DNA of 64,000 nucleotides. It comes from a bacterium (lineage in GTDB: Bacteria; SZUA-182; DTGQ01). Made by a program: the position numbers and the translations under genes. Of the stretch, positions 2,599-11,383 are shown piece by piece. The stretch covers positions 1 to 64,000 of the forward strand of contig JBFLZW010000024.1 in the NCBI GenBank assembly GCA_040755755.1, read 5' to 3'. The notes below the pieces were generated by a model. It saw only the letters and a list, made by a program, of their open reading frames with translations. It was not told where the DNA came from and did not search any database. How positions within the stretch are numbered: the first letter of the stretch is position 1; each line of letters begins with the position of its first letter.

Positions 2599-2904
2599 AT
2601 GGAAGGAGATCAGGAAAAGACTCTGGCGGAAATACGGGCCCGAGTCAAAGGCCTGCTGGTTGATAATCTTGCCCTGCAAGATATTCAGGCGGAAGATATT
2701 CGGGATGATGAAATTCTGTTCGGGGAGGAAGGGCTTGGCCTTGATTCTCTGGATGCCGTTGAAATAGTTGTCCTGCTGCAAAGAAACTTTGGATTGGAAA
2801 TGAAGGATATCGATCAGGGGAAAAAAATATTTTACTCGGTTGACACGTTAGCCCGATATATTTACGAAAACAGGAAAAGCAATACCTCAAAAGAGCAATC
2901 TTGA
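2599..2904 (+). CDS. Acyl carrier protein
   Basis: 101-residue acyl carrier protein. The phosphopantetheine attachment site is Ser50 in GLGLDSLDAVEI, and the flanking helices look canonical. It would carry the growing acyl or polyketide chain as a thioester in the cytoplasm. The gene ends 7 bp before a ketosynthase, and a second ketosynthase-like gene overlaps that one, so the three form one operon and the ACP is almost certainly dedicated to this pair rather than to primary fatty acid synthesis. The start is an ATG after a GGGGATAGGAATAG stretch; an upstream start cannot be excluded. Confidence 0.92.
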   Translation: MEGDQEKTLAEIRARVKGLLVDNLALQDIQAEDIRDDEILFGEEGLGLDSLDAVEIVVLLQRNFGLEMKDIDQGKKIFYSVDTLARYIYENRKSNTSKEQS

Positions 2905-2911
2905 CCTCGGT

Positions 2912-4126
2912 ATGAAAAAGGCGGTAGTAAGCGGAATAGGAGTGATTTCTGCTGCTGGCAAAGACCTTCCTGAAACTCTGGATACCTTCGCCCAGGGAAA
3001 AAGGAATGCGGGTCCGGTGTCCCTGTTTCCTACGCTCCTCACCTATCCGGTCTTTGAAGTACGGGATATTCCCCCGCAATGGCATAAAGAAGGGATGCGT
3101 ACGTTAAGCCTTGCCCTGTGCGCTGTGGCCCAGGCACTCGGCGATGCAGGACTGCCGGACGATCTTTCCTCTCTGAAGGTGGGAGTATGTTTGGGAACCA
3201 CGGTCGCCAGCCAACTGAATGACCTCGAATTTTACCGCTCGTTCCGAAATAGCGGGCAGGCCCCGATGGGAGCGGTTGACCGCTTTCTCCGAGGGAATCT
3301 TGCGCAGGCCGCTGCCCATACGTTCAAAGCAGAGGGACCGGCCCTTACGGTGGTCAATGCCTGCTCATCCGGAGCTGACGCCATTGGGATATCGCTATCC
3401 TGGCTGAAGCAGGGAATATGCGATCTGGCCATAGCCGGGGGCGCTGACGAGTTGAACCATGTCCCCCTGTGCGGCTTCGGGTCCCTGGGAATTGTCAGCG
3501 AATCGTTGTGCGCTCCTTTTGACCGTAACCGATCAGGTTTGAACCTTGGCGAAGGGGCAGGAGTCCTTATTATCGAAGCGGAAGACATCTGCCGACAGAG
3601 AGGAAAAGCCCCCCTGGCGTATCTTGCAGGATATGGAATAGCTGCCGATGCCTATCACCTGACAGCTCCTCACCCGGAAGGAAAAGGGCTGGAAGCGGCT
3701 GTGCGGCAGGCAATGGCTTCGGCCAATATTACTCCCGATGATGTCTCATTTGTCAATGCTCATGGTACAGCCACCCCGGATAACGATAAGGTCGAGGGAA
3801 CCGTTCTGGCCAGGATTTTTGGCCCGGATGTTAAAGTTCTTTCCACCAAAGGGTACACCGGCCATACTCTGGGCGCAGCCGGTGGCCTGGAAGCTGCCTT
3901 TACCGTCGCAGCCCTGCGGGAAGGATGGATACCGGCCAGCATTGGCTTTGTTCACCAGGACACGGAAATACCGCTGGCCCCGGTTGCCGTGAAAACACCG
4001 ATCGAGAAGGGGTATGGGGTTTCCACCTCTCTGGCCTTTGGCGGAAACAATACAGCCCTCATTTTTTCTGCCGCCGGTTGCAGTGTTCGTTCCTCCTCGT
4101 TTCGCAAATGCCGGGATACAGCATGA
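2912..4126 (+). CDS. Beta-ketoacyl-ACP synthase (KAS II / type II PKS KS-alpha like)
   Basis: 404-residue condensing enzyme of the FabF type. All catalytic residues are present: Cys151 in VVNACSSGAD, His284 in VNAHGTATPDND and His318 in GYTGHTLGAAGG; the C-terminus has the family's SLAFGGNNTALIF. It would extend an ACP-bound chain by decarboxylative Claisen condensation. It sits between an ACP (7 bp upstream) and a ketosynthase homologue without the active cysteine, whose ATG overlaps its TGA (ATGA at 4123-4126). That order recalls KS/chain-length-factor/ACP minimal sets of type II polyketide and aryl-polyene pathways. No ketoreductase, dehydratase or thioesterase is adjacent. Confidence 0.92.
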   Translation: MKKAVVSGIGVISAAGKDLPETLDTFAQGKRNAGPVSLFPTLLTYPVFEVRDIPPQWHKEGMRTLSLALCAVAQALGDAGLPDDLSSLKVGVCLGTTVASQLNDLEFYRSFRNSGQAPMGAVDRFLRGNLAQAAAHTFKAEGPALTVVNACSSGADAIGISLSWLKQGICDLAIAGGADELNHVPLCGFGSLGIVSESLCAPFDRNRSGLNLGEGAGVLIIEAEDICRQRGKAPLAYLAGYGIAADAYHLTAPHPEGKGLEAAVRQAMASANITPDDVSFVNAHGTATPDNDKVEGTVLARIFGPDVKVLSTKGYTGHTLGAAGGLEAAFTVAALREGWIPASIGFVHQDTEIPLAPVAVKTPIEKGYGVSTSLAFGGNNTALIFSAAGCSVRSSSFRKCRDTA

Positions 4127-5196
4127 ATATTGCCGGGATAGGGACCATTTGTACCCGTGGACGGGGAATTGAAAGCTTTGCTCATGCCTTGCAGCAAGGG
4201 TGGAAGGCCCCGCAATTCATTAGCCTACAATCCTTACCGGATAAGTCCTTTCCTGTATACCCGCTCAACCAGGAGTCGCTCATGGACAAAGCGGTTCTGG
4301 GGAAAATGCGCCGGGCGGACAGATTCAGCAGGATGGCTGCTCTGGCTGCCTGGGATGCAGTCCAGGACAGCGGCATGGCACTCGATGGGGAACATACCAT
4401 GGGTATTATTGTCGCCTCGGCCTTCGGACCGCATACCACAACCTTCCGCTTTCTGGATGACATCCTCGATTACGGTGAAGCGAATGTTTCTCCGACAGCG
4501 TTTTCCCATTCGGTCCACAATACGGCTGCATCGTATATCGCCTCTCTGCTGGACATTCGAGGGCCAACCATAACCGTGAGCCAGTTTGCTTTCCCGTTTC
4601 ATCAGGCCATTCTTCTGGCCCAGGCCTGGCTCGATGAAAAGCGGTGTGATTATGTCCTTGTCGGCAGCGCGGATGAATCCGGCAGGGTTATGGAATATAT
4701 TTGCAGTCAAAAACTCCGGATTGCTGATGACGGTCAAATCCAGCCCTTCCATTTTTCAGCCGCACCAAAGGCTGTGCCGGGAGAGGGGAGCGTGTTTTTC
4801 CTGATGACCAGCCGGGAAGATGGCCGCAAATATGGTGAATTGTCCGAAGTCGCTCTCTCCAGTCACCGAAATGAAGAGGAGGATAAACCTGACATCTGCA
4901 TCCTCGAAGCGGACGGCATGGCCGGTGACGAAACTGGCTACCGTGATGCCGTTGTGCCCGGTGCCTTTGCAGCCGGATACTCACCGCTGTTTGGCAGCAT
5001 GCTGACCGGCAGCGGCTTCCAGTGCGCTGCCGCCGCTCTGATGCTGAAAGAGCAGATCCGATATGCCTGTCCGGTTCAGGACAATCCCGGCAGGGTGAAT
5101 ATCTGTACCGTGACTGAGACGGCTGAAATACACAGTATTCACTGTATCAGATATCATTGTGGACAGAAAAAGGCTGTTATTAAATTACGGCGATAG
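4123..5196 (+). CDS. Ketosynthase-like chain-length factor without catalytic cysteine
   Basis: 357 residues when started at the ATG overlapping the previous stop; a longer open frame upstream only shadows the ketosynthase. The fold is recognisable from HSVHNTAASYIASLLDIRGP and VLVGSADE. At the position of the nucleophilic cysteine (GPxxTVxxxC) it has GPTITVSQFA, that is Ala156, and no HGTxTxxxD motif is seen, so it cannot condense by the standard mechanism. The SHSVHN motif resembles the chain-length-factor-like ketosynthases of aryl-polyene clusters. It probably forms a heterodimer with the upstream ketosynthase and shapes chain length. Translational coupling supports equal expression. Confidence 0.8.
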   Translation: MNIAGIGTICTRGRGIESFAHALQQGWKAPQFISLQSLPDKSFPVYPLNQESLMDKAVLGKMRRADRFSRMAALAAWDAVQDSGMALDGEHTMGIIVASAFGPHTTTFRFLDDILDYGEANVSPTAFSHSVHNTAASYIASLLDIRGPTITVSQFAFPFHQAILLAQAWLDEKRCDYVLVGSADESGRVMEYICSQKLRIADDGQIQPFHFSAAPKAVPGEGSVFFLMTSREDGRKYGELSEVALSSHRNEEEDKPDICILEADGMAGDETGYRDAVVPGAFAAGYSPLFGSMLTGSGFQCAAAALMLKEQIRYACPVQDNPGRVNICTVTETAEIHSIHCIRYHCGQKKAVIKLRR

Positions 5197-5312: not shown

Positions 5313-5945
5313 ATGCACAAGGTAACAAAGTATCTATCCAACGCCCTGATCGTTTTTTGTATTTGCTGCCTGGGATTTTTTTCCGGTTGTGCCGGCACCT
5401 CGGCAGGGAAAGCGGACCTTACCGAAGGCTCCCAGGCTGTATCCGCCAGTCCCGAAGGGAAACCCTATTTTACCAAGGTCAATATCTGGTACGAGTACAA
5501 GAACGAAAAGCTGAACCCGATTCCCTCTACCAATTATCATCAAGGAGAAATGCTGCCGGTTGGTACGAAAGTAACCATCAAGGAATGCAGCGATAAAAAA
5601 ATCCTGTTTGCCGATGATAGCACCAATACGGTCTACACCCTGGTGTATATAGCAAAGCATGGCCAGATGACGCCGGAGGAATTCTTCGGCCATTATTTCT
5701 CCGAAGGAAATGTCATGGCTGAGGGTGGTGAATTTTCGAAATTTACTCCGGAGGAGCAAAGCAATATTAAAAGCGGTACACTGGCCGAAGGGATGAGCAA
5801 GGAGGCAGTGCTCATGGCTTATGGGTATCCGCCTAAAATCAAAACACCCGATATATCGAACGATGTATGGACTTTTTGGAAAAACCGCTTCGATACCACC
5901 GTGGTGACATTCCAGGATAATAAAATCGCGAACATCAAAGATTAA
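5313..5945 (+). CDS. Lipoprotein with SmpA/BamE-like C-terminal domain
   Basis: 210 residues. The N-terminus is a lipoprotein signal (ALIVFCICCLGFFSGCAG) with the lipid-bearing Cys in FSGC. Residues from about 48 to the end are nearly the same as the last 150 residues of the caspase-like protein encoded next: FTKVNIWYE, PVGTKVTI, GHYFSEGNVMAEGG, EAVLMAYGYPP and the final FQDNKIANIKD. The GMSKEAVLMAYGYPP...W.FWKN...V.F.DNKI pattern resembles SmpA/OmlA (BamE-like) domains. A clear AAGGAGG site precedes the ATG. It is probably anchored in an envelope membrane and may partner or compete with the caspase-like protein; that is inference from the shared domain. Confidence 0.85.
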   Translation: MHKVTKYLSNALIVFCICCLGFFSGCAGTSAGKADLTEGSQAVSASPEGKPYFTKVNIWYEYKNEKLNPIPSTNYHQGEMLPVGTKVTIKECSDKKILFADDSTNTVYTLVYIAKHGQMTPEEFFGHYFSEGNVMAEGGEFSKFTPEEQSNIKSGTLAEGMSKEAVLMAYGYPPKIKTPDISNDVWTFWKNRFDTTVVTFQDNKIANIKD

Positions 5946-6061
5946 CGTACCCTGCACAGTAAATACGCGGCCAGATCGCAAAGGGCAGGCACCAGACAGG
6001 GTGCCTGCCCCTTGCCAGTTATGAGCATGAGAAATCCGGACAATAGAGAGGTGTCTGAGCG

Positions 6062-7765
6062 ATGAGGAAAACGGAGTCACCTGTAAGCGCACTATACTAT
6101 GCTGTCCTGATTTGTTTCGTATCCACATGCTGCTGCTTCTATTCAGCGGCTCAGGCCAGAGATCGGGACCTTTCCATATCCCCCCGGGTTAATTCATCCT
6201 CTCAGCAGCAGGTTGCGAAGCAGGGTGAGTACTGGGCGCTCATTATCGGGATAAACAACTACGAAAACTGGGCTCTTTTGCAGACAGCTCTTGCTGATGC
6301 CACCGCGGTTCGTGAGGTTTTAATTAAAAACTACGGGTTCTCTGAGAAAAAAACTGTCTTTCTGAAGGACCGGGAGGCTACCCGGCAGAATATTTTACGG
6401 GAATTCAGAAAGATGGTGGAAGTAATGAAGGAGGACGATTCCCTTTTCATCTATTATGCAGGTCACGGGTATTTGGACAAGCTCCTGAATGTAGGGTACT
6501 GGGTACCCTGTGACGGCAAGGCAACCGATATCAGCACCTTCATTCCCAACTCCACTATCCATGACCTTGTCAAGGCAGCCAAATCCAAACATATCTATTT
6601 AGTATCCGATTCCTGCTTCTCCGGCTCGCTCTTTTTACGGGCTGAAACTCCCTCCCCGGCTACCATCGATGATCGATACATCAAAAAATATGGAGGGCTC
6701 AAGTCACGGCAGGTGTTATCATCAGGAAATATGGAGCCGGTATCGGATAGCGGCTATGATAACCACTCCATTTTTGCCTACTACTTCATCAAGACCCTGA
6801 AGGAAAACCCGGACCCCTATCTTACCCCGATGGGGATTTTTGAAAGGCTGAAGGTCCCCATGGCCAGAAACGCCAACCAGATTCCAATCTGCAAACCATT
6901 ACAGGATGCCTATGATGAAGGCGGAGAATTCATTTTTGCAAACCTGGCCCTCAAAAACCATCCCGGTAAGCTTAGCCCTCTTCAACAGCCCCCCTCTTCG
7001 GATCTTGAGGTTGAATCGGAAAAAGAAAAGGTTCAGCAGGAAGCAGAGCAGCTCCAGCAGCAAAAGAAACAACTGGAGGAGTTGCGAAAAGCCCTGCTCG
7101 AACAAAAGGCCCTGATCAATGAGCAAAAAGGCGTGGCCGAAGAGAAGGCCAGGATTGAGCAGCAGCTCAAGGAAATTCAGCTCAAGCAGGGAGCTGTACC
7201 AGTCACCCCCGGACAGGTGAAACAGAAGACCGCATCGGTACAGCAGGAAACTATTTATCAGGTGCAAAAACCAATAGAGCCGGCAGCGGGGAAAACCTAT
7301 TTTACCAGGGTCAATATCTGGTATGAGAAGCCGGACCAGATTCCTTCCACCAATTATCATCGAGGGGCTCGCCTGCCGGTTGGAACAAAAGTAACCATCA
7401 GGCAACAGAGCAATGGCAAAATCCGGTTTGCCGTTGATGGTGCCAGTACAGTCTATACCCTGGTATATATACCAAAACATGGCAGGATGACGATGGAGGA
7501 ATTCTTTAGCCATTATTTCTCCGAAGAGAATGTCATGGCCGAGGGTGGTAAATTTTCTCAATTTACGCCGGAGGAGCAAGATAACATTAAACATGGCACC
7601 CTTGCCGAAGGGATGTGCAAGGAGGCAGTGCTCATGGCTTACGGGTATCCACCAAAACACAAAACACCTAATATATCCAATAACGTATGGATCTTTTGGG
7701 AAAACAATCACAATAAGATCGTGGTGACATTCCAGGATAATAAAATCGCGAACATCAAAGATTAA
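6062..7765 (+). CDS. Exported caspase-family (C14) peptidase with coiled coil and SmpA-like domain
   Basis: 567 residues. A signal peptide (about 1-33, hydrophobic ALYYAVLICFV) is followed by a caspase p20 fold at about 57-265: it opens YWALIIGINNYE, the catalytic His is His135 in YYAGHG and the catalytic Cys is Cys185 in SDSCFSG. Residues about 325-395 are a Glu/Gln/Lys-rich coiled coil. The last 150 residues duplicate the domain of the preceding lipoprotein. Caspase-like bacterial peptidases usually cleave after Arg/Lys or Asp and often act in signalling or cell-death modules. Export to the periplasm is predicted from the signal peptide. The gene follows the lipoprotein by 116 bp and ends just before a terminator. 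Confidence 0.9.
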   Translation: MRKTESPVSALYYAVLICFVSTCCCFYSAAQARDRDLSISPRVNSSSQQQVAKQGEYWALIIGINNYENWALLQTALADATAVREVLIKNYGFSEKKTVFLKDREATRQNILREFRKMVEVMKEDDSLFIYYAGHGYLDKLLNVGYWVPCDGKATDISTFIPNSTIHDLVKAAKSKHIYLVSDSCFSGSLFLRAETPSPATIDDRYIKKYGGLKSRQVLSSGNMEPVSDSGYDNHSIFAYYFIKTLKENPDPYLTPMGIFERLKVPMARNANQIPICKPLQDAYDEGGEFIFANLALKNHPGKLSPLQQPPSSDLEVESEKEKVQQEAEQLQQQKKQLEELRKALLEQKALINEQKGVAEEKARIEQQLKEIQLKQGAVPVTPGQVKQKTASVQQETIYQVQKPIEPAAGKTYFTRVNIWYEKPDQIPSTNYHRGARLPVGTKVTIRQQSNGKIRFAVDGASTVYTLVYIPKHGRMTMEEFFSHYFSEENVMAEGGKFSQFTPEEQDNIKHGTLAEGMCKEAVLMAYGYPPKHKTPNISNNVWIFWENNHNKIVVTFQDNKIANIKD

Positions 7766-7782
7766 GGTACTTCGCTCAAGAA

Positions 7783-7810
7783 AAAAGGCGGGATTTTTAT
7801 CCCGCCTTTT
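7783..7810. terminator. Bidirectional rho-independent terminator
   Basis: AAAAGGCGGGAT (7783-7794), loop TTTT and ATCCCGCCTTTT (7799-7810) form a perfect 12-bp stem with A-tract and T-tract arms. It lies between the convergent caspase-like and beta-barrel genes and can serve both strands. Confidence 0.9.
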
Positions 7811-7841
7811 CTGTTGTGGCAAGTAATGATGTCCAGAATTT

Positions 7842-8282
7842 CTAAAAGACAGCGAATATACTTGCAGTAAATTCGCAGGGTTTTATTTTTTCAGTTGTGG
7901 TAATATAATCAGTATGGTAGTAGTAATTATAATAATAACTGGTTTCAACCTTTCTCTCAAACTCTATTTCAGCCTGATAGAAAGATAATTCAAACCCGAA
8001 GCCCACTTTTTTGGTTCTTAAAAATTCAACTCCGACAGCCGCGAACACTCCGGGTTTCGACCTATCGACGTAATCTCCGCTGGCTGCATGATAGCTCAAT
8101 CCAGCGCGGACATACGGGGAAACACTGATCCGGGGGATCGCGTATCGTACGTCAAGCTTAAGAGGAAAGTTTACAAAACTGGCATCCCCCGCGATAACCA
8201 TGATGGGGCCAATTCCACCCCCAACTCCGAGACCAAAGTCGAACTGGACATAAGGATGGAATGAAACAGCTTCACGTTTCAT
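7842..8282 (-). CDS. Outer-membrane beta-barrel-like protein, probably lacking its N-terminus
   Basis: 146 residues with alternating hydrophobic/aromatic strands (FDFGLGVGGGIGP, ISVSPYVRAGLSYH, KVGFGFELSFYQAEIE) and a terminal Phe, typical of small OmpA-like or OprG-like barrels. There is no signal peptide. The AAGGAGG just upstream sits only 0-2 bp from the ATG, too close for normal initiation, and the frame stays open upstream without a good start. A short peptide ending VSITMVKEDET is encoded in another frame in the 95-bp gap to the next gene. The protein may be a 5'-truncated relic, or a frameshift may hide its signal sequence. Confidence 0.55.
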   Translation of the reverse strand: MKREAVSFHPYVQFDFGLGVGGGIGPIMVIAGDASFVNFPLKLDVRYAIPRISVSPYVRAGLSYHAASGDYVDRSKPGVFAAVGVEFLRTKKVGFGFELSFYQAEIEFERKVETSYYYNYYYHTDYITTTEKIKPCEFTASIFAVF

Positions 8283-8377
8283 CCTCCTTAACCATAGTGA
8301 TTGATACGGTATTAATAAGAACCTCTCCTGTCATTGTAATCTTTTCCAGATCAAAAATTCAAGGTACTCCATTCACC

Positions 8378-10531
8378 CTAATTTTCATGTATCCTGATCT
8401 CGGTAAAATCCTGCACCCAGGTCAGGGAGGAGAGATTTTGCATGCCGATGGACAAATCCCGCAGCCCTCGGGTATTTTCTTTTTCAAGGGAACAGAATGC
8501 CGCAGGATCTACCAGGGCGAACGGCTCGATAGAGGCTATGGCTTTAATCCTTTCGATGCCTGCCGGGCCTGAGACGGTTATGTTGACCCCCCCGAATTCG
8601 GGTGACGGGATGGAATACGTTCTGCCACCCCTGATAAAATTATCCTTCTGCAGTGGATTGGGGAAAATTACCGTCAGTTTGCCGCTTGTCCCGATATCCA
8701 GCAGCGAAAGATAGCAATCCCTGTCCGATTTGACATACAAGGTAAGAGAATCTCCTGTCTTATAATCACTGCGGTCGGTCCATAGATCAATGCTGAACTT
8801 GCGCTCCTCTTCCTCTGAAAAATACACTTTATCAAGCGTAAGGTCATAAGCGGGTGCGGTATCCTGATTCTGACTATGACCGCTTTTCGAATCAAGAGAT
8901 TTGAGATCGGCACTATCGATGGAGTCCCTGGCGATAATGATCCTGGCTGTCGAGACGAGGGTCCCGTCATCCGTATCCACCAGTTTGGCATTGATTCGCA
9001 AGCCCTGGTCATAAAGCCAGTATACCCCTGAAAGGTAGTAGTCCGCTTTTAATGCCCTGGCTTTCTCCCGCAGGTCCCTGTCCCTGGCTTTGTCAGGGGA
9101 GCCTTCTTCGTCAATCACGACGAAACCATCCACTTTGGCCAGAGTTGTCCGCAGGTCAGATTCCAGAACCCTGCTGAGAATAAGCCTTTCTTCGCTCCTG
9201 GCCTCGGAAAAATCCAGGACTGCCACCTTGCTGCTGCTACTGCTGGCAGCAGCTCCGGCAGTAGTGGCATTCGTATATATTCTGGCTATGACTTCTTCCA
9301 CCAGCTTGACTATCCCCTCAGACCAGGGATATGCTTCGGGTTCTCTGGCCATATCCGCAATGAGAAGATCATAGGTGAATGTCGCCTTTTTCCCGCTCCC
9401 CTGCCCGCCGTCTTCAAGGTTAACCACTGCGGATATGGTATTCACCCGGTTCTTCGATTGATCGACCCGGTATACCTTTGATCTGGCTATGCCATTGGCA
9501 TCGGTGATCACCCCGGCATCCAGCTCTCCGGTGGAAGAATCAAAGGCGAATTTCACCGGCATTCCGGCTATGGGGTATTGGTTCTTCCGGTCGCCCTCCT
9601 GACCTTCAAAAAGCACTTTGACTGCCAGATCCCTGGCCAGAGGACTGCCTGCAAACCCTTTCTGGTTATTTCCATCGACCGGGAAAATCCGGATATTCGA
9701 GATAATGTTATCCAGCCTCCTTTTGCTATCGGCCAATGACTTTTCCCCATCCTGTATCCTTGCCTCAAGCTCCTGGCTCTTGAGGTCTGACTTATCTTTC
9801 CGGATTATCGAACGCTGCTTGAGCAGCACATGAAAGCTGTCCGCCATCGCATTTGCCTGCCGGTAGCTATCGAGGGCCTTGACCAGTTCCCTGTTATTTT
9901 CCTGCCCCAGGCCCGACGAATAGAGATTATGGATAGTCTCAAGACTGCTGATAATCTCGCCTTCCAACGCTCCTGCCGCCGTATCCCTCTCCAGGGTAGC
10001 CAGAGAATAATACCGCCTCTCCTGTTCACTATACCACCTTTCACTGATGGTCAGCCCGGCTATCTTAGTGTCTATCTTAACCTTTATCTTCGATTCGACC
10101 CGCGACTCCAGGGAGGTGGAGTGGTGCTGACCGTGGATTCCTTTCGCTTCCTGCTGGAGAGAGGTTTCCCCCTGGAAAGAGGTTTCTTCGCCTGAAATCT
10201 CCATCTCTATCTGCTTGAGGAGGTCCATGCGCGCATCTTCATCTGCGGATGTGCTATCCTTATCTGATACGCCGACACCAGTGAGGTAAAAGGCATATGG
10301 GTATCTGATATCTTTCCGGGATACAACCCAGGATGGGGCGGTTTCTTTTACCCTGCGGATTGCGGCTGAAGATGGAGGTGGAGATTTAGGCGTTGATGCA
10401 GATGCAGGTGTGTTTGTGACCTGCTTTCCGGCTGTATCCGGTAACTGGCGATGAGCGCAGCCGGTAAGACAGGGCAGGAAAAAGCTGGTTACAAGGAATA
10501 AGAAGACAAGGAATATTGGGGTATTTTTCAT
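8378..10531 (-). CDS. Large lipoprotein with LPP20, FlgO/CsgG-like and DUF4384-like domains
   Basis: 717 residues. Lipoprotein signal with lipobox LTGC near residue 24. In order: a low-complexity linker; an LPP20-like domain (PYAFYLTGVGVSDKDS to about 190); a helical segment; an immunoglobulin-like module (MPVKFAFDSSTGELDAGVIT, about 325-385); a FlgO/CsgG-like module (VAVLDFSEARSEE to VSTARIII, about 430-540); and a C-terminal DUF4384-like domain (FSIDLWTDRSDYKTGDSLTL to SIEPF). DUF4384 domains commonly accompany bacterial caspase-like proteins, which fits the neighbouring exported caspase. It is probably an outer-membrane-associated scaffold; no enzymatic motif is visible. Confidence 0.85.
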   Translation of the reverse strand: MKNTPIFLVFLFLVTSFFLPCLTGCAHRQLPDTAGKQVTNTPASASTPKSPPPSSAAIRRVKETAPSWVVSRKDIRYPYAFYLTGVGVSDKDSTSADEDARMDLLKQIEMEISGEETSFQGETSLQQEAKGIHGQHHSTSLESRVESKIKVKIDTKIAGLTISERWYSEQERRYYSLATLERDTAAGALEGEIISSLETIHNLYSSGLGQENNRELVKALDSYRQANAMADSFHVLLKQRSIIRKDKSDLKSQELEARIQDGEKSLADSKRRLDNIISNIRIFPVDGNNQKGFAGSPLARDLAVKVLFEGQEGDRKNQYPIAGMPVKFAFDSSTGELDAGVITDANGIARSKVYRVDQSKNRVNTISAVVNLEDGGQGSGKKATFTYDLLIADMAREPEAYPWSEGIVKLVEEVIARIYTNATTAGAAASSSSSKVAVLDFSEARSEERLILSRVLESDLRTTLAKVDGFVVIDEEGSPDKARDRDLREKARALKADYYLSGVYWLYDQGLRINAKLVDTDDGTLVSTARIIIARDSIDSADLKSLDSKSGHSQNQDTAPAYDLTLDKVYFSEEEERKFSIDLWTDRSDYKTGDSLTLYVKSDRDCYLSLLDIGTSGKLTVIFPNPLQKDNFIRGGRTYSIPSPEFGGVNITVSGPAGIERIKAIASIEPFALVDPAAFCSLEKENTRGLRDLSIGMQNLSSLTWVQDFTEIRIHEN

Positions 10532-10547
10532 TCTGCCTGCTCTCTTT

Positions 10548-10580
10548 ATCCGCCTCTCCCCTTTACGGGGAGAGGCGGAT
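10548..10580. other. Strong hairpin without T-tract
   Basis: ATCCGCCTCTCCCC (10548-10561) and GGGGAGAGGCGGAT (10567-10580) form a perfect 14-bp stem with a 5-base loop. It is in the leader of the large lipoprotein gene. No T-run follows on either strand, so it may attenuate or stabilise mRNA rather than terminate transcription. Confidence 0.6.
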
Positions 10581-10595
10581 ATTCATATCTGAAGT

Positions 10596-10715
10596 GAATG
10601 GCACTTACATAAGAATTCGTAATTTTCCCGCAGAGACGCTCTGCGGGAGATCGTTTTCCCCTGTGCGCTTTGTGTCCTCTCTATATTATAAGCTTGGCTT
10701 ATGTAAGTGCCATTC
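10596..10715. mobile_element. 120-bp MITE-like element with 18-bp perfect terminal inverted repeats
   Basis: GAATGGCACTTACATAAG at 10596-10613 is exactly mirrored by CTTATGTAAGTGCCATTC at 10698-10715. An inner hairpin TCCCGCAGAG/CTCTGCGGGA lies at about 10626-10648. There is no coding capacity and no clear target duplication. It fills the gap between the two lipoprotein genes and may carry promoter or terminator signals into it. Confidence 0.7.
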
Positions 10716-10744
10716 TTTCTAAAGTGGCATCAGCAAGAACAGTT

Positions 10745-11383
10745 TTATTGCCCGGCTTTCTCTTCCCGCTTCTCCACCTCTTTTGACAGCTCGTCATGTA
10801 ATTTCCCGGCATTCTCCCTGACATAATCTTTGACCTTGGAGTTCAATTCCTTCGCCTTGTCAAGGTTTTGTTCGAACTCGTTCAGGTCGAGCATTGCTAA
10901 CGAGAAGATCAGGCCCTGGTTTTCGGGCGACTCCCAATGATCAATTATTTGCACACCGGACAGGGTCATCGAGGAAACAGTCTTGATTGCCTGTTCAACA
11001 TGCTGCTCCTCACTTGTTTCGGAAAAATCACCCGCTGTGGTGGAGGCTGCATAATCCTTCATCAGTGAAGCTACGTAGGTCTCAAATGTCTTGGCCACTT
11101 CGTTCCTGGCACGGTTATCCGCTGTGGAGCGAAGGAGAGAATAATTTTTTATGCCCGATGCCGAACCAACACCATAAAAAACTTTCTTGCCTCCATCCTG
11201 AAAGGCACCACTGCCTTTGGTTACCCATGGAGGGGATTCCACCTTTTTAAATCCAATAGTAGTTTCTGCCGGTTTGGCGACAGGTTCTCCCGTCTCTACT
11301 TTTTTCCCTGCGCATCCGCTGAAAACAACCAGGCATACAAGGCTCATAAGGATTGTTTTGTGCATCTGTTGCCGATCAAACAC
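10745..11383 (-). CDS. LPP20-family lipoprotein
   Basis: 212 residues. The GTG at 11383 is preferred because AAAGGAGG lies 8 bp upstream. The signal sequence ends at a lipobox FSGC (about residue 24). The mature part opens with a spacer, then PPWVTKG and KVFYGVGSASGIKN, the LPP20 signature, followed by a helical domain with QIIDHWESPENQGLIFSLAM and a charged C-terminal helix. LPP20 proteins are envelope lipoproteins of unsettled function, often paired with FlgO/FlgP-like or CsgG-like proteins. It lies upstream of the larger LPP20 lipoprotein on the same strand, so the two may share a transcript despite the MITE between them. Confidence 0.85.
   Translation of the reverse strand: MFDRQQMHKTILMSLVCLVVFSGCAGKKVETGEPVAKPAETTIGFKKVESPPWVTKGSGAFQDGGKKVFYGVGSASGIKNYSLLRSTADNRARNEVAKTFETYVASLMKDYAASTTAGDFSETSEEQHVEQAIKTVSSMTLSGVQIIDHWESPENQGLIFSLAMLDLNEFEQNLDKAKELNSKVKDYVRENAGKLHDELSKEVEKREEKAGQ

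What the first reader, a model, noticed from the sequence alone, without database searches (positions are those of the whole stretch)
5313..11383. Candidate exported caspase module with domain-sharing lipoproteins
A caspase-like peptidase with intact His135/Cys185 and a signal peptide is next to a lipoprotein carrying its C-terminal domain, and faces (convergent) an LPP20/FlgO-like/DUF4384-like lipoprotein and a second LPP20 lipoprotein. DUF4384 is a known companion of bacterial caspases, but an envelope set with duplicated SmpA-like domains is not a described system that I know. It may be a periplasmic proteolytic or stress module.
Basis: partly seen in the sequence, partly recalled or inferred. 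Interest (0 to 1): 0.62.

Follow-up and report, generated by a model that had tools for sequence, protein, structure and literature searches.

The report
Exported caspase with borrowed lipoprotein domain
A bacterial relative of the animal cell-death protease caspase is predicted to be sent to the cell envelope; it sits beside lipoprotein genes that accompany such exported caspases in several distant bacteria, and its tail is a copy of a domain from the lipoprotein gene next door.

Summary
The genes are real. The caspase (6062-7765) has a signal-peptide-like N-terminus, an intact H135/C185 pair, and a C-terminal ~160 aa domain 75% identical to the lipoprotein next door (5313-5945). Kryptonium, Ca. 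Thermokryptus and a further unnamed lineage, sit beside LPP20 and LPP20-DUF4384 lipoproteins. In 281 genomes outside the phylum, 9 of the 20 holding both kinds of gene have them within 10 kb (about 0.6 expected). The lipoprotein at 5313 does not belong to that set: in four other genomes its relatives sit with ACP/ketosynthase genes and no caspase. The window caspase's tail is best read as a local capture of a neighbour's domain (SH3-like plus BamE-like fold). Exported caspases elsewhere carry other tails (beta-barrel, PEGA, FGE-sulfatase, ricin, laminin-G, Lcl_C), and one tandem pair shows a swap. Prokaryotic caspases with signal peptides, DUF4384 fusions and variable C-termini (EACC1 systems) are already described; I found no description of the exported LPP20/DUF4384 arrangement. 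Function remains inference: a periplasmic, outer-membrane-tethered orthocaspase. New variant of a known kind.

The parts
6062..7765 (+). Exported caspase (C14/orthocaspase): signal peptide ~1-33 (..AQA/RD), caspase domain ~55-295 with H135/C185, coiled-coil-rich linker ~310-400, C-terminal SH3-like + BamE-like domain ~408-567
   Evidence: PF00656 E=2.4e-20; PDB metacaspases; 70% identity in the catalytic domain to the G003 ortholog, which lacks the C-terminal domain
7283..7762 (+). C-terminal domain of the caspase, copy of the neighbouring lipoprotein's domain
   Evidence: 75% aa identity; dN/dS about 0.3 by NG86, 0.47 by YN00; found fused to a caspase only here
5313..5945 (+). Lipoprotein with SH3-like + BamE-like domain; member of an ACP/ketosynthase-associated family
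   Evidence: lipobox FSGC; homologs beside ACP/KS genes in G001, G006, G007, G074; AF2 model pLDDT 76.5, BamE Foldseek probability 0.99 but E=0.03
8378..10531 (-). LPP20 - coiled coil - Ig-like - FlgO - DUF4384 lipoprotein
   Evidence: PF02169, PF17680, PF14326, weak Big_1; G003 relative 55% identical; same LPP20+DUF4384 layout beside caspases in L094, L097, L187, L050
10745..11383 (-). LPP20 lipoprotein (likely start at the internal ATG of MHKTILMS, just upstream of the lipobox)
   Evidence: PF02169 E=1.9e-6; relative next to the DUF4384 gene in G003 C349
7842..8282 (-). Outer-membrane beta-barrel gene, N-terminally truncated
   Evidence: PF13505 E=2e-6, just under cut-off; 56% identity to residues 68-203 of the G001 protein, which lies next to the lipoprotein homolog there
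2599..5196 (+). ACP - KS1 - KS2 operon with which the 5313 lipoprotein is associated elsewhere (not part of the caspase set)
   Evidence: PF00550, PF00109/PF02801; neighbours in other genomes

Best explanation
An exported, probably active orthocaspase works in the periplasm. Its constant part is the signal peptide plus caspase domain plus coiled-coil linker. Its C-terminal domain is an exchangeable docking domain, here an SH3-like/BamE-like domain duplicated from the adjacent lipoprotein gene, that would place the protease at the inner face of the outer membrane or at that lipoprotein's binding partner. The convergent LPP20-FlgO-DUF4384 and LPP20 lipoproteins are its usual envelope partners, most likely an outer-membrane scaffold or sensor that recruits or gates the protease. 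On envelope damage the caspase would be released or activated and cleave envelope proteins after Arg/Lys. Shown: the genes, the domain copy, the recurrence of caspase with LPP20/DUF4384 genes, and the diversity of C-termini. Inferred: export, outer-membrane location, activity, partnership and trigger.
For: Intact H/C pair and signal peptide, also in nearly all close homologs. Ortholog in G003 divergent from LPP20 and LPP20-DUF4384 lipoproteins, with another DUF4384 protein and a beta-barrel nearby. Kryptonium: three LPP20 genes, a CsgG-like gene, an LPP20-FlgO-DUF4384 gene and a caspase fused to an outer-membrane barrel, all in one direction; Thermokryptus the same in part. G267: LPP20 twice, LPP20-DUF4384 and three exported caspases. 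Co-location in 9 of 20 genomes holding both against 0.56 pairs expected. Different C-terminal domains on exported caspases and a tandem pair with near-identical caspase domains but ricin versus laminin-G tails. The domain's relatives are stand-alone elsewhere and mostly sit with KS operons; the caspase ortholog lacks it.
Against: The closest relatives of the window's LPP20/DUF4384 pair (G003 C349) have no caspase on their 13.6 kb contig, and G002 of the same genus has no hit for any of the four genes. In the window the two halves are convergent, not one operon. Most DUF4384/LPP20 loci in other genomes (49 of 60) have no caspase nearby. BamE likeness is sub-threshold by sequence. No activity, localisation or interaction data.
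Confidence: 0.55

Rival explanations
1. Chance neighbours: an exported caspase landed between the lipoprotein of a ketosynthase operon and a beta-barrel gene, next to an unrelated LPP20/DUF4384 lipoprotein pair; there is no joint function.
For: Lipoprotein and barrel are adjacent without a caspase in G001; the pair occurs without a caspase in G003 C349; convergent layout.
Against: Caspase plus LPP20/DUF4384 recurs in distant lineages and with the caspase's own ortholog.
Confidence: 0.25
2. An exported offshoot of the EACC1-type caspase conflict systems (constant caspase plus variable C-terminal effector domain), where autoproteolysis frees the C-terminal domain as the effector.
For: NCBIfam NF047832 (EACC1-associated caspase) is a below-cut-off match (62 vs 140 bits); constant caspase with variable C-termini as in System 4 of PMC7159879.
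Against: No EACC1 (PF19953) in any of 9 genomes of the phylum, though no control genome rang either; signal peptide and lipoprotein partners place it outside the cytoplasm; C-termini are binding or anchor-like folds rather than toxins or NTPases.
Confidence: 0.12
3. A non-proteolytic scaffold: the caspase fold is used for binding or secretion, and the shared domain pairs the caspase with the lipid/polyene-type ACP-KS pathway of the neighbouring operon.
For: The shared domain's family follows or adjoins ACP-KS genes in four other genomes; a paralog in the same genome (C63) has Ser for the catalytic Cys.
Against: H135/C185 kept in this protein and most homologs; no link between the caspase ortholog and KS genes was seen.
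Confidence: 0.08

Closest known systems
Prokaryotic metacaspases/orthocaspases (PF00656), surveyed in PMC3501461
   Same: Caspase domain with H/C pair; some members have an N-terminal TM helix or signal peptide and accessory domains; surface-function operons reported
   Different: That survey's text does not mention DUF4384 or LPP20; no C-terminal SH3/BamE-like domain was reported in what I read
EACC1-caspase two-gene conflict system (System 4, PMC7159879)
   Same: Constant N-terminal caspase with many alternative C-terminal domains; membrane-linked
   Different: EACC1 not found here; described as a membrane sensor plus caspase with effector C-termini, without exported LPP20/DUF4384 lipoproteins
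Cyanobacterial orthocaspases with DUF4384 (PMC8283722, PMC7475262)
   Same: DUF4384 linked to caspases
   Different: There DUF4384 is an accessory domain of the caspase itself; here it is on a separate LPP20-FlgO lipoprotein
FlgO/FlgP/FlgT and LPP20 outer-membrane proteins, CsgG/LpoB-like folds (from general knowledge plus Pfam names)
   Same: LPP20 and FlgO domains in an outer-membrane lipoprotein
   Different: No flagellar genes seen next to it; DUF4384 and Ig-like parts added; caspase partner
BamE/SmpA (PF04355)
   Same: C-terminal half of the shared domain folds like BamE by prediction
   Different: Sequence match below cut-off; extra SH3-like half; associated with KS operon or caspase, not with Bam

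Membership tests
Peptidase C14 (orthocaspase) | Caspase domain above Pfam cut-off | tested here: met
   73.7 bits vs 21.4
Peptidase C14 (orthocaspase) | Catalytic His-Cys pair | tested here: met
   H135 and C185
Peptidase C14 (orthocaspase) | Arg/Lys-specific cleavage, autoprocessing | not testable with these tools
   needs purified protein
EACC1-caspase System 4 | Adjacent EACC1 gene | tested here: inconclusive
   0 of 9 genomes for PF19953, controls silent
EACC1-caspase System 4 | EACC1-associated caspase model over cut-off | tested here: not met
   62.2 vs 140 bits
EACC1-caspase System 4 | Constant caspase, variable C-terminus | tested here: met
LPP20/DUF4384 lipoproteins | PF02169 and PF14326 above cut-off, lipobox | tested here: met
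   LTGC and FSGC read in sequence
BamE (PF04355) | Family model over cut-off | tested here: not met
   window proteins no hit; relatives 12.7-16.3 vs 23.2 bits
BamE (PF04355) | BamE-like fold | tested here: inconclusive
   Foldseek probability 0.99, E=0.03, TMt 0.41
PADLOC defence systems | Recognised defence gene set | tested here: not met
   the only sizeable match is the generic 'caspase' model; lipoproteins have no hit

The most novel reading that the evidence does not exclude
A widespread envelope caspase system in Gram-negative bacteria: an exported caspase with swappable C-terminal docking domains, recruited by LPP20-FlgO-DUF4384 outer-membrane lipoproteins, in which new docking domains are captured from neighbouring genes. 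The window would show one such capture while it is still recognisable.
Probability: 0.3. Interest if true: 0.72.

Novelty: new variant of a known kind. Interest (0 to 1): 0.5.

Why it matters
Bacterial caspases are mostly discussed as cytoplasmic death or defence proteases. A recurrent exported version with defined outer-membrane partners and exchangeable tails would point to a periplasmic caspase pathway that can be tested directly, and it gives DUF4384, a domain of unknown function, a concrete partner. The window also shows how such caspases can gain new tails: by copying a domain from the gene next door.

Tried and rejected
Viral contigs: no relatives of the caspase. Placing the 5313 lipoprotein in the caspase set: rejected, because its family adjoins ACP/KS genes in four other genomes and no caspase carries or neighbours it elsewhere in the data. 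Defence system: only the generic caspase model in PADLOC. EACC1: none found, but the control was silent. AF2 of the DUF4384 lipoprotein: mean pLDDT 53.6, too poor for a fold search, so I used only domain order. Sequence profile of the shared domain against PDB: no hit. Promoter/terminator scan: no more sites than shuffles. Tree of the shared domain: too few and too divergent rows to resolve; identities (75% to each other, 51% each to G074) still put the two window copies together.

Full report
What is there. The window is contig C24 of a 5.26 Mb genome from a small phylum (9 genomes held). Reading the + strand: ACP, KS1, KS2 (2599-5196), lipoprotein (5313-5945), caspase (6062-7765); then on the - strand a truncated beta-barrel gene (7842-8282), the LPP20-FlgO-DUF4384 lipoprotein (8378-10531) and an LPP20 lipoprotein (10745-11383). 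The caspase has a signal-peptide-like N-terminus, a PF00656 domain with H135 and C185, a coiled-coil-rich linker, and a C-terminal domain copied from the neighbouring lipoprotein: 75% aa identity, 82% nucleotide identity over 158 codons, NG86 dN 0.147 and dS 0.487, so both copies look constrained.

The shared domain. AF2 on a five-row alignment gives a usable model (mean pLDDT 76.5; about 87-97 over residues 121-210): an SH3-like barrel followed by an alpha-alpha-beta-beta-beta unit. The best sensible PDB match is BamE (probability 0.99, E=0.03); SH3 domains match the other half. Three relatives hit PF04355 below cut-off over the same region. So 'SmpA-like' is a fair fold guess, not a family assignment.

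Where the domain comes from. Relatives of the lipoprotein occur in G001, G006 and G007 (same phylum) and G074 (outside it), in each case near ACP/ketosynthase genes; in G006 and G074 they directly follow the KS2 gene. A more distant relative in G151 has no such neighbours. The G006 operon also holds a lipid-A-type acyltransferase and a GT2 gene, which resembles aryl-polyene-type clusters (the aryl-polyene comparison is from general knowledge). None of these lies next to a caspase, and no other caspase seen here carries the domain. The caspase's own ortholog in G003 (70% identical over the catalytic domain) ends after the linker. The simplest reading is that the window caspase gained its tail by copying the neighbouring gene's domain. 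The window lipoprotein and the caspase tail are closer to each other (75%) than either is to G074 (51%).

Is the caspase set real? The genome-contig scan returned 80 caspase loci from many phyla; nearly all of the closest ones start with a signal peptide or TM segment by a simple test of my own. In G003 the ortholog is divergent from an LPP20 and an LPP20-DUF4384 lipoprotein, with a second DUF4384 protein and a beta-barrel on the other side. In Ca. Kryptonium thompsonii the run is LPP20, LPP20 lipoprotein, LPP20x2, CsgG-like, LPP20-FlgO-DUF4384, then a caspase whose tail is an outer-membrane barrel; Ca. Thermokryptus has the end of the same run. In G267 two LPP20 genes, an LPP20-DUF4384 gene and three exported caspases lie within about 14 kb. 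DUF4384 genes adjoin exported caspases in Nitrospirae, Spirochaetales, Desulfonema and Dokdonia contigs too, and a protein with weak LPP20 and DUF4384 matches adjoins one in a Verrucomicrobia contig.

Reverse test. The LPP20-DUF4384 profile was run over 290 genomes, and PF00656 over the same set. Outside the phylum 56 of 281 genomes have the profile, 60 have a caspase and 20 have both (odds ratio 2.6, P=0.004). In 9 of the 20 the two lie within 10 kb (in two, G277 and G282, in one protein), against 0.56 pairs expected at random (P about 1e-8). Of 60 fetched DUF4384/LPP20 loci, 11 contain a caspase and 49 do not: the link is real but these domains have other lives. The profile matches either its LPP20 or its DUF4384 part, and genomes are not independent samples, so the P values are indicative.

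Swappable tails. Pfam on exported caspases shows an outer-membrane barrel (L094), PEGA plus DUF5683 (L113), FGE-sulfatase (L069, L077), Lcl_C (L048, L187), ricin-B lectin and laminin-G (L187). In L187 two neighbouring caspases are almost identical through residue ~285 and then differ: one continues into laminin-G, the other keeps about 20 residues of laminin-G start (VAYYPFNGNANDESGN) and then a ricin-type lectin. This supports tail exchange as a general habit, of which the window is another case.

Known ground. N-terminal TM helices that may be signal peptides, accessory domains and surface-function operons of prokaryotic caspases were described in PMC3501461. Constant caspase plus variable C-terminus is the EACC1 system of PMC7159879. 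DUF4384 as a caspase accessory domain is in PMC8283722 and PMC7475262. No paper in the searched library joins DUF4384 with LPP20 and exported caspases; the library is open-access only. The EACC1 caspase model misses its cut-off here and EACC1 was not found (control silent).

Limits. Localisation rests on sequence motifs. The exact four-gene set is unique to this genome; its sister G002 has none of it. The window's LPP20/DUF4384 pair and the G003 caspase-linked pair are paralogs. Function and trigger are inferred.

Noticed in passing
window 7842-8282 (-): Beta-barrel gene lacks the first ~67 residues, including the signal peptide, of its G001 relative, so it is probably a decayed or truncated gene.
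   Followed up: partly
L061:8833-10854 (G000 C63:12832-14853): Second exported caspase-like protein in the same genome with DASFSG, that is Ser in place of the catalytic Cys, and a C-terminal part that reads like PEGA plus FGE-sulfatase: a likely pseudo-orthocaspase.
   Followed up: no
L060:8825-11227 (G000 C6): Third caspase of this genome is a lipoprotein directly followed by an exported DUF4384 protein.
   Followed up: partly
L057:1024-4907 and L058:1988-6042: What look like a sigma factor and an anti-sigma-like gene precede an exported caspase in two genomes; sigma-factor caspase operons are known from Myxococcus (PMC3501461).
   Followed up: no
L187:5146-9303: Tandem exported caspases with near-identical catalytic halves and different lectin-like tails, with a leftover laminin-G start before the ricin domain: a trace of a tail swap.
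   Followed up: partly
L054:1952-9284 and L050:3665-7402: G005 and G003 share a longer caspase neighbourhood with similar lipoproteins and proteins carrying a WDEY/WDAF..DYDE motif; in G003 it leads into an SLT transglycosylase and has an in-frame TAG near L050:6338.
   Followed up: no
L045:8975-9560: G003 relative of the window LPP20 gene has a frameshift in the middle (two frames), either an assembly error or a broken gene.
   Followed up: partly
window 5983-6012: Perfect hairpin GGGCAGGCACC..GGTGCCTGCCC between lipoprotein and caspase genes, and a likely bidirectional terminator at about 7779-7812 after the caspase.
   Followed up: no
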